Of a stretch of 50,367 nucleotides of DNA, positions 126 through 50,246 are shown piece after piece. The stretch comes from Candidatus Saccharimonadota bacterium. GTDB lineage: Bacteria > Patescibacteriota > Saccharimonadia > Saccharimonadales > Saccharimonadaceae. The notes below the pieces were generated by a model. That model saw only the letters and a program-made list of their open reading frames with translations, ran no database searches and was not told the DNA's origin. Within the stretch, counting starts at the first letter, position 1; every line of letters begins with the position of its first letter. The stretch covers positions 1-50,367 of the forward strand of contig RZYF01000002.1 in assembly GCA_010014665.1 (NCBI GenBank). The letters are read 5' to 3'. Position numbers and translations under genes: made by a program.

Positions 126-2054
126 ATGCAAAAAATAATCTTCGATACTAAAACCCGCCCACAAGATGATTTCTATGGTTACGTAAACAATTTTTGGTTG
201 GCCAAGAACCCCATACCAGCTAGTGAAACCCGCTGGGGGACTTTTGATATATTACGTGACAATTCATGGCGAGCTGTCCATGAAATCGTCAACGATCTAA
301 CAGCTATGGATACCCGGGAGATAACTCGTGACCAACAAACTTTGAAGCGTTTTTTTGAAAGCGCTCTGACATTTGATTCGCACGGCCAAAATCATATCGA
401 CAGCCTACTAGTTGAGAAACAGCTAATCGACGAAGTTTCTACCCAGTCCGATATCGCCCGTCTGATCGGTCGTCATCATAGGTTAGGCCTTGCGCCACTT
501 TTTACTGAATACACAGAACTCGACGACAAAAACTCTCAGATGCAAGTCCTGCGAATTCATCAAGCTGGACTAAGCTTACCAAACCGAGATTACTACCTAG
601 AGGCAGACACACGGATGGTTAAAATACGTACTGCCTACACTAACCATCTGGAAACTATTGGTAAAGTTGTAGGAAATCTAGCGCCAAAAAAGTCTAAAGA
701 GATTATCGATTTTGAAACCAAACTAGCCAAAGCTTCTTGGACCGACGTTGAACTACGCGACGTCCAGCGCAACTACACGCGCATGACGTTAGCAGAACTA
801 GAAAAACGTTATGCCAGCTTCGACTGGACAGCATTCTTCGACGGTCTGGGCTGGAAAAAACCAAGTGATCATATAGTCGTTGACCAGCCAACTTATCTCG
901 ATGCTATGTTCGGCCTACTTGATAAAACGCCGATTGAGATTATCAAAGAATATTTAAACTGGCATCTGTTGAACGGTTTCGTTAGTTGGATCGACCAGGC
1001 CGGATCAGACAAAAACTTTGCTTTTTACGGAATGATACTCGGCGGTATGAAACAGCAAAAACCCCTCTGGAAGCGGGCTACTATATTAGCCGACAGTTTA
1101 GTAATCGGTGAAGCTCTGGGGCGTGAATATGCTACTCGCCACTTCCCAGAAAGTTCCAAACTAGCAGTTACCGAACTAGTCAATCAGATCCGTGAAGCTT
1201 ATCATGTACGGATAGACCGTTTAACTTGGATGAAACCTGATACAAAAAAACTCGCCCATCGGAAACTGAACAATATAAAGGTTTTCGTAGGCTATCCGAG
1301 TAAATGGAAGGATTTGTCGTCACTGGATTTTAGTCAAAACAACTTGATTGCCAATCTGATGCAGGCTCGCGAACTAAATACCGATATAGAGCTTGCCAAA
1401 ATTGGCACCCCACCACCAAACGAAGAATGGTACATGAATGCCCAGACAGTCAACGCTTATAATCACCCGAATCGCCTAGAGATTGTGTTTCCAGCTGCTA
1501 TATTGCAACCGCCTTTTTACGACCCTACCGCGTCACAGGCCACCAACCTAGGCGGAATCGGCGCTGTTATCGGCCACGAATTGACTCACGGTTTCGATGA
1601 CCAAGGCGCCCAATACGACGAACAGGGTAACACCAACCAATGGATTAGTGACAACGAGCTCAAATCCTTTACCAGCCTAGCAGATAATATCGTGCGTCAG
1701 GCTGACGCTTTCGAAGCAGCGCCGGGTATATTTTTACAAGGCAAATTAATATTAGGTGAAGCGATTGCTGATATCGGTGGTCTAGCGCTGGCTGTAGAAG
1801 CCCTCGAGCACTCCGCAACCCCAAAAGAGTTCCAGTCTTCGTTACCTGATTTGTTTGTAAATTTTGCTCGCTGTGAATGTGGCGCTACCCGCTTGGAACG
1901 TGCTATAGAACTTGCCAAAACTGACCCACACCCACCTAGCCCATTTCGCGTCAACTATGTTGTCTGTCACATCGACACGTTCTATGAAGCCTACGATGTA
2001 ACCGAAACTGACAAACTATATCTACCACCAGAAAACCGCGCTAAGATTTGGTAA
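126..2054 (+). CDS. M13 family metallopeptidase (neprilysin/PepO-like), no obvious signal peptide
   Basis: 642 aa; zinc motif VIGHELTHGFDDQGAQYD, downstream GEAIADIGG, C-terminal PENRAKIW typical of M13. Confidence 0.93.
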   Translation: MQKIIFDTKTRPQDDFYGYVNNFWLAKNPIPASETRWGTFDILRDNSWRAVHEIVNDLTAMDTREITRDQQTLKRFFESALTFDSHGQNHIDSLLVEKQLIDEVSTQSDIARLIGRHHRLGLAPLFTEYTELDDKNSQMQVLRIHQAGLSLPNRDYYLEADTRMVKIRTAYTNHLETIGKVVGNLAPKKSKEIIDFETKLAKASWTDVELRDVQRNYTRMTLAELEKRYASFDWTAFFDGLGWKKPSDHIVVDQPTYLDAMFGLLDKTPIEIIKEYLNWHLLNGFVSWIDQAGSDKNFAFYGMILGGMKQQKPLWKRATILADSLVIGEALGREYATRHFPESSKLAVTELVNQIREAYHVRIDRLTWMKPDTKKLAHRKLNNIKVFVGYPSKWKDLSSLDFSQNNLIANLMQARELNTDIELAKIGTPPPNEEWYMNAQTVNAYNHPNRLEIVFPAAILQPPFYDPTASQATNLGGIGAVIGHELTHGFDDQGAQYDEQGNTNQWISDNELKSFTSLADNIVRQADAFEAAPGIFLQGKLILGEAIADIGGLALAVEALEHSATPKEFQSSLPDLFVNFARCECGATRLERAIELAKTDPHPPSPFRVNYVVCHIDTFYEAYDVTETDKLYLPPENRAKIW

Positions 2055-2193
2055 TATCAAAGCCAGTTAAGCCTAAGACGTAGCAAACGAACTAGCAAGC
2101 TATTAAATACAACTGATCGATTCGATAAGTTCCTGTTTAGTGCAGAAGTGATAAAATTTTGTCTTAAATTTAAAGTAATTTTGGCATGAGCGA

Positions 2194-2219
2194 GGCCCGC
2201 TAGTGTGCACTAGCGGGCC
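2194..2219. terminator. GC-rich hairpin at 3' end of island-1 gene
   Basis: GGCCCGCTAGTG-TG-CACTAGCGGGCC, perfect inverted repeat. Confidence 0.6.
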
Positions 2220-2227
2220 AATGGAGC

Positions 2228-2731
2228 TCAAGCTCCTTGAGTGGCATCTCCGAGTTCAGAGAGCCGTTGCTCCATGACTTCGATGAGTACCTTGGCGTAG
2301 TGGTGAAGCTTGCCACCGGCGTCAAATTTCTCGCCAGGCTGTCGATTGTCGGCGAAGCCTACGAAGACCTCACCTGCTTCCGAAAGCCCAAAGCACTGGT
2401 CCGGCACGCCACTATGGGGCCGAGTGAGGTCAGGCACTCTACTGAGGAGGTCGATGTGACACAGGAACTGCGTTGGGAACGTACCGTACGACTCCACGAG
2501 CTCTCGGTTGACTATGTCAGCCCAAGTGCGACGTTGAAGAATCACAAGCGGAACGCTCTTGAACCCCGCTTCATTGAGTTGTTTGCCGAGCTCAGAGATA
2601 CGTGCGTTTAGCTTATTGCACAATTCTGCCTTCTCCTCTTCGGCAATCCTGCGTCGGATCTCGCCATCAGCTTCTTCAGCCGTTCTGGCGAGTACTTCCT
2701 GTCTGATGGCTTCGCGCCTTGCGTCATCCAT
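2228..2731 (-). CDS. hypothetical protein, island 1 (N-terminal charged helical segment), GC-richer than neighbours
   Basis: 167 aa ORF; GGAAGG Shine-Dalgarno upstream of ATG; 3' hairpin at 2194-2219. A 124-aa ORF on the opposite strand is less supported. Confidence 0.6.
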   Translation of the reverse strand: MDDARREAIRQEVLARTAEEADGEIRRRIAEEEKAELCNKLNARISELGKQLNEAGFKSVPLVILQRRTWADIVNRELVESYGTFPTQFLCHIDLLSRVPDLTRPHSGVPDQCFGLSEAGEVFVGFADNRQPGEKFDAGGKLHHYAKVLIEVMEQRLSELGDATQGA

Positions 2732-2889
2732 CGCTTCTACCTTCCGTCGAGCTCCAAACTTTGCGGAGCATGGTTTTTTGGAAAAACCTTAGGACCTTAC
2801 TCCCAAAGTCAATATTACTTTACTATTTAATTGCATTTAATGCAACTTGTTCAGTATTTATAACTTTAAGCAATTTCCTGACCATAAAA

Positions 2890-4045: not shown

Positions 4046-4057
4046 TGACAGAGCAGG
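4046..4057 (+). repeat. island-2 inverted repeat, 5' arm
   Basis: TGACAGAGCAGG, perfect reverse complement of 4525-4536. Confidence 0.7.
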
Positions 4058-4136
4058 AACAAACTGTTCGACTGGTCTCAATGCGTGTGATATCTCGCAT
4101 GTATCGAGACCATTCGAACGAAAGGGGCATGAACAA

Positions 4137-4481
4137 ATGCTATTGGTCAACGAAGAAAGGTCGGCACTGCGACAAGTCAATCGTGCTGCCAGGAAGCTGA
4201 AGAAGCGGATCGACAAGTTGGAAAACTCCGAGAGATGGAAGAAGATGGAAGTGTGGGAGCGCTATCTCGAACACGACCACCTCATCTGGTCAGCTGTCTG
4301 GCACATCCCATTGAGGATGCACAAGAGCATCGCTTCCCTCACCTCCTGGCTCGAGAGCCGGGCCCTCCTCACAGACTACTACAAAGATAACCGCTCCAAA
4401 CCAACAAGAAGGGATGTTCGTGAATTGTGCGTGTACGCACTTCTGGTGAAGAGTGTATACGCCACAGAAGAAGTTCGCTAG
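4137..4481 (+). CDS. hypothetical protein, island 2 (basic, helical), GC-richer than neighbours
   Basis: 114 aa ORF; AGGGG Shine-Dalgarno 9 nt upstream of ATG; hairpin directly after stop. Confidence 0.6.
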   Translation: MLLVNEERSALRQVNRAARKLKKRIDKLENSERWKKMEVWERYLEHDHLIWSAVWHIPLRMHKSIASLTSWLESRALLTDYYKDNRSKPTRRDVRELCVYALLVKSVYATEEVR

Positions 4482-4483
4482 TT

Positions 4484-4507
4484 GGCGCGGGGCTTCGGCC
4501 CCGCGCC
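4484..4507 (+). terminator. 10-bp GC hairpin with TTCG tetraloop after the island-2 gene (no immediate U-tract)
   Basis: GGCGCGGGGC-TTCG-GCCCCGCGCC. Confidence 0.7.
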
Positions 4508-4524
4508 CAGGCGCTCCTTCTTGC

Positions 4525-4536
4525 CCTGCTCTGTCA
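4525..4536 (-). repeat. island-2 inverted repeat, 3' arm
   Basis: CCTGCTCTGTCA, reverse complement of 4046-4057; followed by TTTTCTC. Confidence 0.7.
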
Positions 4537-19332: not shown

Positions 19333-19347
19333 ACAAACAGACAGACT
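19333..19347 (+). repeat. island-3 inverted repeat, 3' arm (relative to its gene)
   Basis: ACAAACAGACAGACT, perfect reverse complement of 20156-20170. Confidence 0.75.
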
Positions 19348-19357
19348 AGCAACCCGA

Positions 19358-19391
19358 CTTTGCGGACCCGGGATGACCCGGGTCCGCAAAG
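19358..19391. terminator. 15-bp perfect hairpin at 3' end of island-3 gene (no U-tract)
   Basis: CTTTGCGGACCCGGG-ATGA-CCCGGGTCCGCAAAG. Confidence 0.7.
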
Positions 19392-19399
19392 TATTCGAG

Positions 19400-20059
19400 T
19401 CAGTCGCAGAGACCCAGATCTTCGAATAGGCGTCTTACGAGGTTGTAATCGGCTGTGGAGCCAGCCTCGCCCTCGTCATCGGTGAACGACATGGGCACCT
19501 GGGTAGTACGATCGATCAAGAAGTCGACTGTGTTTTCAAGTCTATTGATGACCACACCGACCACGAACCGCTTGGCCTCGTTGCAGAGCGCCTCCGTGGT
19601 GAGGGTATGTAAGCGGGCACGCTCCTCTTGCACCTTACCGTCAGGAGTACAGGCAATGATCTGCTCGATGTGAACTTGCCGGTGCGCGAGATCTTTCTTG
19701 CGTGCCTTCTCGCCGACCGGATCGTCGACCAGCTCCACAAACCTTCCAACGACGTAGTCAGTGATAGCGGTGGCAACCCCGCGTGCGTCCTCAGCACCGA
19801 CTACAGTCACCTCAACGTAGAGGCTGTAGCCGACACCGCTGGAGCTATTGACGATTGAGTGACTGTTGTTGCCGGGCTCAACCCGACCAACGATGTCGAA
19901 GGGGTCCAGATCGTCAATCTCCCTGATAACTTCGTCGACTGTCGAGAAGTCCCGTCCTGGATGTAGCTGTCGGAATTCCGACTACTGTCTCCGTAGACCG
20001 CTAGCCCTCATGAGACACTCAGTTGTAATCTTGGGTTCAGTGGTTGGATTAGTAGTCAT
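19400..20059 (-). CDS. hypothetical protein, island 3; frame interrupted by one in-frame TAG (19982-19984). Uninterrupted part is 19400-19810
   Basis: ATG at 20057-20059 with GAGGAG Shine-Dalgarno (20067-20072). The frame continues for 25 codons, a TAG, then 193 codons plus stop. Confidence 0.55.
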
Positions 20060-20101
20060 AGCAAAACTCCTCGGTTGTCACATGGATCCTGGATGGATCG
20101 C

Positions 20102-20155
20102 GTGTAGTGTGGCAAGCTAGGTTCATCTCTATAAACACAGCTTGCCAAACTACAC
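20102..20155 (-). promoter_or_regulatory. long leader hairpin of island 3
   Basis: Arms 20102-20118 and 20139-20155, 16 of 17 paired, directly abutting the inverted repeat. Confidence 0.7.
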
Positions 20156-20170
20156 AGTCTGTCTGTTTGT
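20156..20170 (-). repeat. island-3 inverted repeat, 5' arm
   Basis: AGTCTGTCTGTTTGT on the plus strand, reverse complement of 19333-19347. Confidence 0.75.
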
Positions 20171-20212
20171 CAAAGTATCTCGGAGCAATATGCTACACGA
20201 GCACTGTTTTTT

Positions 20213-20241
20213 ATAATAGCACTATTATTTAAAATTGTCAA
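20213..20241 (-). promoter_or_regulatory. sigma70-type promoter of island 3
   Basis: Minus strand TTGACA - 17 nt - TATTAT. Confidence 0.7.
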
Positions 20242-49729: not shown

Positions 49730-49743
49730 CGACAAGCAGACCA
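49730..49743 (+). repeat. island-4 inverted repeat, 3' arm (relative to its gene)
   Basis: CGACAAGCAGACCA, perfect reverse complement of 50233-50246. Confidence 0.75.
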
Positions 49744-49839
49744 TTATAGAATAAAGCACGTAGCTTCAACTACAAAAGCGATGATTGGCGTCAGCGATGT
49801 TGCCCTTGAGGCTTGGAGTCAGGATGTTATTCCAGGTAC

Positions 49840-50214
49840 TCAGGGAGTCAGGATGTGGGCTTTGCAGGGCTCACAGCGGCTCAGGTGAAGTTCCCACGCC
49901 AGCTCGTAAGCGGCTGCCGCGAGTTCGCGTTCCGCTGGCGAAGCCTCTTCCGGAGCATACATAGCGGCGACGTAATCCATGGACAGATGGTCCTCTTCCC
50001 AATTGCGAGTGAGGACTCGACGGGCACGGGGTGTGTAGAGGATCGCTTCCACCTGCTGAGGGCTACGTGGCCCCTGGTAAAGGAGCCTCACGAGCTGCCT
50101 TAGCCAGAGTCCGTTCCCTAGGTACGTTGGGTTAAACTCTTGCTTGAGCGCTACGCGAGCCAATGCAGCGCGCAGTTTTTCGAGATCGAACAAGTGCTGT
50201 GGCGCGTCGGTCAT
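49840..50214 (-). CDS. hypothetical protein, island 4, GC-richer than neighbours
   Basis: 124 aa ORF; AGAAGG Shine-Dalgarno upstream of ATG. Confidence 0.6.
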   Translation of the reverse strand: MTDAPQHLFDLEKLRAALARVALKQEFNPTYLGNGLWLRQLVRLLYQGPRSPQQVEAILYTPRARRVLTRNWEEDHLSMDYVAAMYAPEEASPAERELAAAAYELAWELHLSRCEPCKAHILTP

Positions 50215-50232
50215 GACAGCCTTCTTTCGTAG

Positions 50233-50246
50233 TGGTCTGCTTGTCG
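50233..50246 (-). repeat. island-4 inverted repeat, 5' arm
   Basis: TGGTCTGCTTGTCG on the plus strand. Confidence 0.75.

What the first reader, a model, noticed from the sequence alone, without database searches (positions are those of the whole stretch)
19333..20170. Island 3: 15-bp perfect inverted repeat plus 16/17-bp leader hairpin and 15-bp trailer hairpin
ACAAACAGACAGACT arms (19333-19347, 20156-20170) enclose the ORF. The 5' arm directly abuts a leader hairpin (20102-20118 / 20139-20155) and the 3' arm lies 10 nt from a perfect CTTTGCGGACCCGGG hairpin with no U-tract. This symmetric repeat-hairpin-ORF-hairpin-repeat layout is not explained by a simple terminator.
Basis: seen in the sequence. 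Interest (0 to 1): 0.66.

Follow-up and report, generated by a model that had tools for sequence, protein, structure and literature searches.

The report
RNA-framed swappable gene cassette, Saccharibacteria
In tiny parasitic bacteria (Saccharibacteria), a conserved RNA frame whose two ends are complementary encloses single, fast-changing foreign-looking genes; the repeat-and-hairpin layout that was flagged is one copy of this frame, which probably folds the messenger RNA back on itself to control or protect it.

Summary
The layout is real and not a chance palindrome. Island 3 (19333-20170, minus strand) is one member of a family of single-gene cassettes in Saccharibacteria. Order: sigma70-like promoter outside, 5' hairpin, motif CTCCGAGATACTTTGACAARCAGAC that includes the 5' arm, leader hairpin, SD, G+C-rich ORF, trailer hairpin without U-tract, 3' arm.

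Two tests that did not select for repeats confirm the pairing. Loci found by the 5' motif alone, or by a covariance model of the 3' module alone, carry the matching other arm (9-14 nt) at 15 of the intergenic hits in other genomes. The arms change together: 7 of 14 pairs changed on both sides, 0/500 shuffles. Between two sister loci the frame is 86-100% identical over most blocks, while the ORFs align at only 40-66% in DNA and the proteins are 28% identical.

The arms lie downstream of the predicted promoters, so both are in the mRNA. In one subtype the 3' arm also sits in a G.U-rich hairpin that competes with the 5' arm.

Best reading: an mRNA frame closed by 5'-3' long-distance pairing, resembling hok/aapA fold-back but not type I toxin-antitoxin. 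There is no support for excision, transposition or inversion. The island 3 ORF has an in-frame TAG at codon 26.

The parts
20213..20241 (-). Predicted sigma70 promoter: -35 TTGACA (20241-20236), 17-nt spacer, -10 TATTAT (20218-20213); outside the repeats
   Evidence: Read from sequence; equivalent promoters at the other cassettes. Not measured.
20174..20205 (-). 5'-terminal hairpin of the predicted transcript (P0)
   Evidence: RNA folding; similar 5' hairpins fold in cassettes B, D, L119, L227 and L151
20156..20185 (-). Conserved motif CTCCGAGATACTTTG plus 5' arm ACAAACAGACAGACT (arm 20156-20170)
   Evidence: CTCCGAGATACTTTGACAARCAGACA shared with L268 of another genus; ACTTTGACAAACAGAC found only here and in G017 among 380 phylum-wide genomes
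20102..20155 (-). Leader hairpin between the 5' arm and the SD
20067..20071 (-). Shine-Dalgarno-like AGGAG
   Evidence: Sequence
19400..20059 (-). Cargo ORF of island 3 (C): 25 codons, in-frame TAG at 19984-19982, then 193 open codons; GC3 0.66 in the 193-codon part; no homologue found
   Evidence: searches
19357..19392 (-). Trailer hairpin, 16-bp perfect stem, no U-tract
19333..19347 (-). 3' arm AGTCTGTCTGTTTGT, complement of the 5' arm
   Evidence: 15/15 pairs in the MFE structure, mean pair probability 0.99
4046..4536 (+). Sister cassette B (rnhB-rplS gap): arms 4046-4057 and 4525-4536 (TGACAGAGCAGG), leader hairpin, ORF 4137-4481 (114 aa, GC3 0.68), trailer hairpin 4484-4507
49730..50246 (-). 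Sister cassette D: arms 50246-50233 and 49743-49730 (CGACAAGCAGACCA), ORF 50214-49840 (124 aa, GC3 0.65); 5' motif GCACCTCGACAAGCAG
2171..2822 (-). Probable related island A (167-aa ORF 2731-2228, trailer hairpin 2219-2194); only a weak 9-nt arm TAAAGTAAT, membership uncertain

Best explanation
Island 3 is a single-gene cassette in a Saccharibacteria genome, expressed from its own outside promoter as one mRNA. Its 5' and 3' untranslated parts form a conserved structured frame. The 5' arm pairs with the 3' arm and closes the mRNA into a panhandle; a 5' hairpin, a leader hairpin and a trailer hairpin complete the frame. In one subtype the 3' arm can instead fold into a local, G.U-rich 24-bp trailer hairpin, so the RNA has two competing states (terminal closure or local hairpin). 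Closure most likely blocks or delays translation and protects both mRNA ends until the 3' end is processed or the switch flips. The frame is conserved while the enclosed gene is replaced or diverges very fast. SHOWN by computation: anatomy, recurrence, joint variation of the arms, frame conserved with ORF divergence, near-equal predicted energies of the two folds. INFERRED: promoter use, transcript ends, translational control, RNA stability, and an actinobacterial (host) origin of the cargo genes.
For: (1) Cassettes defined without looking at repeats (GC3-high ORF plus G+C-rich trailer hairpin): 6 of 18 have leader-trailer complementarity of score >=11 against 0.18 expected from swapped trailers; 3 reach >=14 against 0.00; ordinary genes 4 of 300. 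(2) A search with the 5' motif only in 384 genomes gave 18 hits. D plus eight loci in other genomes (L249, L250, L257-L261, L263) have a perfect 11-14 nt complement 344-1198 nt downstream; L251/L252 keep 8 nt; the remaining hits have none or a 6-nt match and mostly look like chance hits in coding sequence, but L254 is a true negative for an exact motif. (3) A covariance model of the 3' module only: 8 of 9 further hits have the matching 5' arm, 9-14 nt, including changed pairs such as TGACAAACAGACGC and TGACAAGCAGGTAC mirrored in the 3' arm. (4) In rows chosen by one arm only, 7 of 14 pairs change on both sides, 92% of cells paired, 0/500 shuffles. (5) The arms are downstream of predicted promoters at the loci read. 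In G027 L117 and the G013 triplet they start about at the predicted +1; in G027 L122 the 5' arm contains the SD AAGGAGG. (6) Closure is in the MFE structure of nine cassettes with pair probability 0.96-1.00. (7) Three-strand behaviour: the left strand of the 3' hairpin differs from the 5' arm mainly by changes that keep G.U pairs in RNA; the ensemble splits 0.22/0.78 to 0.92/0.08. (8) L259/L260: frame conserved, ORF diverged.
Against: No transcript data: TSSs, 3' ends and both folds are predictions. The arm sequence is itself conserved in many loci (TGACAAGCAGACA), which pure pairing would not need; a protein or DNA-level site is possible. In L250 the local hairpin wins outright and in L251 the predicted partner is elsewhere. 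Some otherwise similar islands (E, G) have no clear arm and A and F only 9-nt ones. ViennaRNA on 400-1300 nt is unreliable for one pairing by itself. The ORF of island 3 has a stop at codon 26, so this copy may be decaying.
Confidence: 0.66

Rival explanations
1. The arms are DNA recombination sites: the cassette, or its ORF, is exchanged, inverted or integrated by a site-specific recombinase that recognises YGACAARCAGA at both ends.
For: The arm core is conserved in inverted orientation at both ends across genera. ORFs are unrelated between loci and one sister locus shows ORF divergence inside conserved flanks. The uvrB-gatC gap is an insertion hotspot, and L151 has a layout-identical cassette at that site.
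Against: Three sister pairs show the same orientation. The promoter, a conserved 5' hairpin and flanking motif lie outside the arms, and the outer flanks differ (GCACTT against TRTTCGC). The local hairpin keeps RNA-style G.U pairs, which DNA sites would not need. Arm length and sequence vary with exact compensation. No recombinase gene in the cassettes examined.
Confidence: 0.17
2. Terminal inverted repeats of a non-autonomous transposon (a mobile insertion cassette with a passenger gene).
For: Perfect repeats around a foreign-looking gene; ancestral gatC-uvrB spacing of 35-60 bp in relatives against 1.3 kb here.
Against: No target-site duplication read at B, C or D; the AT-rich flanks are also absent in relatives; promoter at a roughly constant distance (30-46 nt from -10) outside the arm; no full element with transposase found.
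Confidence: 0.06
3. The repeats and hairpins are only mRNA end protection or terminators of recently acquired high-GC genes, with no regulatory role.
For: Strong hairpins at both ends; host-type terminators lie further downstream of some cassettes (B, F).
Against: It does not explain two alternative partners for the 3' arm or the 5' arm covering an SD in L122. It remains compatible with the panhandle itself.
Confidence: 0.11

Closest known systems
Type I toxin mRNAs with 5'-3' long-distance interaction (hok, aapA family; PMC6733600)
   Same: 5' and 3' ends of one mRNA pair, strong hairpins, metastable alternatives, an arm that can cover an SD (L122)
   Different: ORFs of about 75-300 aa, often soluble, unrelated between loci; no overlapping antisense RNA gene identified; other phylum; arms up to 1.2 kb apart
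Integron gene cassettes
   Same: One promoterless ORF with folded repeat ends; content changes while ends are kept
   Different: No attC consensus GTTRRRY/RYYYAAC at the arms by inspection; scattered singly, each with its own promoter; IntI not searched
Phage morons
   Same: Single foreign-composition gene with its own promoter and hairpin, inserted between conserved genes
   Different: Chromosomal, with a conserved RNA frame; no phage relatives of the three cargo genes of this window that were tested
Mobile insertion cassettes (MITE with passenger gene)
   Same: Inverted repeats around a passenger gene
   Different: Promoter and 5' hairpin lie outside the repeats; no target duplication read

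Membership tests
Type I toxin-antitoxin mRNA (hok/aapA) | 5'-3' long-distance pairing of the toxin mRNA | tested here: met
   Joint arm variation and folding; prediction only
Type I toxin-antitoxin mRNA (hok/aapA) | Small hydrophobic toxin (about 60 aa or less) | tested here: not met
   Island 3 ORF 219 codons with a TAG; others 75-298 aa, many soluble
Type I toxin-antitoxin mRNA (hok/aapA) | Overlapping antisense RNA | not testable with these tools
   Needs RNA-seq
Integron gene cassette | attC site and integron integrase | tested here: inconclusive
   Arms lack GTTRRRY/RYYYAAC by inspection; IntI not searched
Insertion sequence / MITE | Target-site duplication flanking the repeats | tested here: not met
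   Flanks of B, C and D read by eye: none
Insertion sequence / MITE | Autonomous relative with transposase and the same ends | not tested
   No transposase seen in the cassettes read; autonomous copies were not searched for
Invertible (phase-variable) segment | Both orientations found | tested here: not met
   Sister loci L259/L260, L251/L252 and L272/L273 have the same orientation; population reads not available
Known Rfam family | Match to a covariance model | tested here: not met
   No match at the cassettes; only sub-threshold chance matches at island 3

The most novel reading that the evidence does not exclude
A previously undescribed bistable mRNA frame of Saccharibacteria that carries exchangeable, host-codon-like genes. 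High GC3 (0.53-0.95 across cassettes), one cargo of a family seen in an actinobacterium (DUF6197) and armoured mRNA ends are also what one would expect if the frame serves capture of host genes, or makes transcripts meant to act or be translated in the actinobacterial host.
Probability: 0.12. Interest if true: 0.95.

Novelty: new variant of a known kind. Interest (0 to 1): 0.76.

Why it matters
It gives a searchable handle (5' motif plus 3' hairpin model) on a class of lineage-specific genes in an obligate epibiont group whose host-interaction genes are largely unknown. It also shows an RNA structure kept more strictly than the protein it encloses. If closure controls expression, it is a new use of fold-back mRNA regulation outside toxin genes, and testable with existing Saccharibacteria cocultures.

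Tried and rejected
Relatives of the island 3 protein: none in 198 family genomes, genome contigs, viral contigs, phages, plasmids, Pfam, PHROGs or NCBIfam. Islands A and D: none in phages or viral contigs. Rfam: none. Arm sequence as one fixed repeat in the own genome: only C exactly. A1, the triplet protein family of G013: found only in G013 among 343 genomes. Idea that all islands share a target-site duplication: not seen. Idea that dN/dS shows diversifying selection in L272/L273: 8 nonsynonymous against 2 synonymous differences, too few to conclude. Literature searches found nothing on such cassettes. Alignment A3 shows stronger covariation but its rows were partly chosen for having repeats, so I rely on A5.

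Full report
SETTING. The window is one contig of a 928-kb, 157-contig draft genome. UvrB relatives place it in Candidatus Saccharibacteria. Host genes have GC3 of about 0.32-0.47; islands in the window have 0.58-0.68. Island 3 lies between gatC and uvrB. In relatives these genes are 35-60 bp apart (G076, G027, L144, L146, L147, L158, L171), while here the gap is 1.3 kb.

OBSERVATION. The repeats and hairpins are as described. Added here: a promoter-like TTGACA-17-TATTAT just outside the 5' arm, an AGGAG before ATG 20059, and an ORF of 219 codons with one in-frame TAG (codon 26). One 15-nt inverted pair at that spacing is seen in the window against 0.05 expected. So the pair alone is suggestive and recurrence is what decides.

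RECURRENCE. In the same window, B (4046-4536) and D (49730-50246) have the same order of parts with 12- and 14-nt arms; D has no clear hairpin between arm and SD. In 570 kb of this genome only five G+C-rich, U-less hairpins of 11 bp or more exist, four of them at the 3' end of such islands. G027 has a 75-aa cassette with a 16-nt perfect arm starting at the predicted +1, and a 142-aa cassette (GC3 0.93) with a 14-nt arm. L151, another Saccharibacterium, has a layout-identical cassette with a different 14-nt arm and ORF at the same uvrB-gatC site. G013 has three tandem paralogous cassettes whose arms differ together.

STATISTICS WITHOUT SELECTION FOR REPEATS. Cassettes chosen by GC3 and trailer hairpin: 6/18 with strong leader-trailer complementarity against 0.18 expected. 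An exhaustive scan for repeat plus hairpin gave 11 in 1.46 Mb of Saccharibacteria (a few of these, such as L046, are chance pairs) and none in 0.32 Mb of other bacteria.

THE MOTIF AND TWO SEARCHES. Aligning the 5' sides revealed CACYT-N-GACAAG. Searching GCACYTNGACAAGSNG in 384 family genomes gave 18 hits; I counted 8 hits of the reversed control pattern. D and eight loci of other genomes had the complementary arm downstream (one of them, L249, is the G027 L122 locus seen before); two more (sister loci) had a shorter one; L254 carries the exact motif without an arm. A covariance model of the 3' module found nine further loci, eight with the matching 5' arm. The arms covary in rows picked by one side only. 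Island 3 shares CTCCGAGATACTTTGACAARCAGACA with L268 from another genus. ACTTTGACAARCAGAC occurs only in island 3 and one other Saccharibacterium among 380 genomes spread over the phylum; most of those genomes are outside the family.

RNA OR DNA. The promoters lie outside the arms at a roughly constant distance, so both arms are transcribed. Closure is in the MFE fold of all nine transcripts tested. In L257-L260, L250 and L263 the 3' arm is also part of a local hairpin, and in L257-L260 the partner strand is rich in G.U pairs; predicted occupancy of the two states is close in L257 and L258. G.U-preserving changes speak for RNA. In L122 the arm contains the SD, so closure would hide it. Against a DNA-level explanation: same orientation in three sister pairs, asymmetric outer flanks, no target duplication, no recombinase. 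A recombination role of the conserved arm core is not excluded.

FRAME VERSUS CARGO. L259 and L260 sit at the same place in sister species. From the promoter to the SD and from the stop codon to the 3' arm they are mostly 86-100% identical. Between these, blocks of 50 nt align at 40-66% and the proteins are 28% identical. Cargoes elsewhere are singletons, except DUF6197 in L272 (E 4e-16; the only plasmid relative is from Frankia) and a sub-threshold CAAX-protease-like protein in L251. That donors are the actinobacterial hosts is inference.

MECHANISM. The closest working analogue is the aapA/hok mRNA, where 5'-3' pairing makes a stable, untranslated full-length form activated by 3' trimming (PMC6733600). 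I propose the same logic with a replaceable ORF. Membership in type I toxin-antitoxin is not claimed: the small hydrophobic toxin criterion fails and the antisense RNA is untested.

LIMITS. All expression statements are predictions. Only part of each genome could be read. E-values of model R1 are rough (trained on four sequences). The island 3 ORF may be a pseudogene, though its frame is intact.

Noticed in passing
window 1984-2061 and 2884-2961: The last 78 nt of a peptidase M13 gene are repeated (77% identical) on the far side of island A, as if the gene's 3' end had been duplicated around the insert.
   Followed up: partly
L117:562-701 (G027): At the same M13-rnhB site the relative has a 140-bp element with perfect GACAAGCTGACG arms and a hairpin but no ORF: an empty frame or remnant.
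   Followed up: partly
L071:9770-10330 (own genome): G+C-rich island with two long hairpins and a small 40-60 residue ORF on the minus strand (MIGNGFKLGNIGPPTADQF...), possibly a peptide precursor.
   Followed up: no
L240:17780-19300 (G013): Three tandem paralogous cassettes, proteins found in no other of 343 genomes.
   Followed up: partly
L261 (G139): One frame with 13-nt arms encloses at least four consecutive small high-GC ORFs over 1.2 kb.
   Followed up: no
L272/L273 (G017, G121): Cargo with GC3 0.94-0.95 belongs to DUF6197; only plasmid relative is from Frankia.
   Followed up: partly
L151-L155, L159, L161, L163: The uvrB-gatC gap is an insertion hotspot with different inserts in different Saccharibacteria.
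   Followed up: partly
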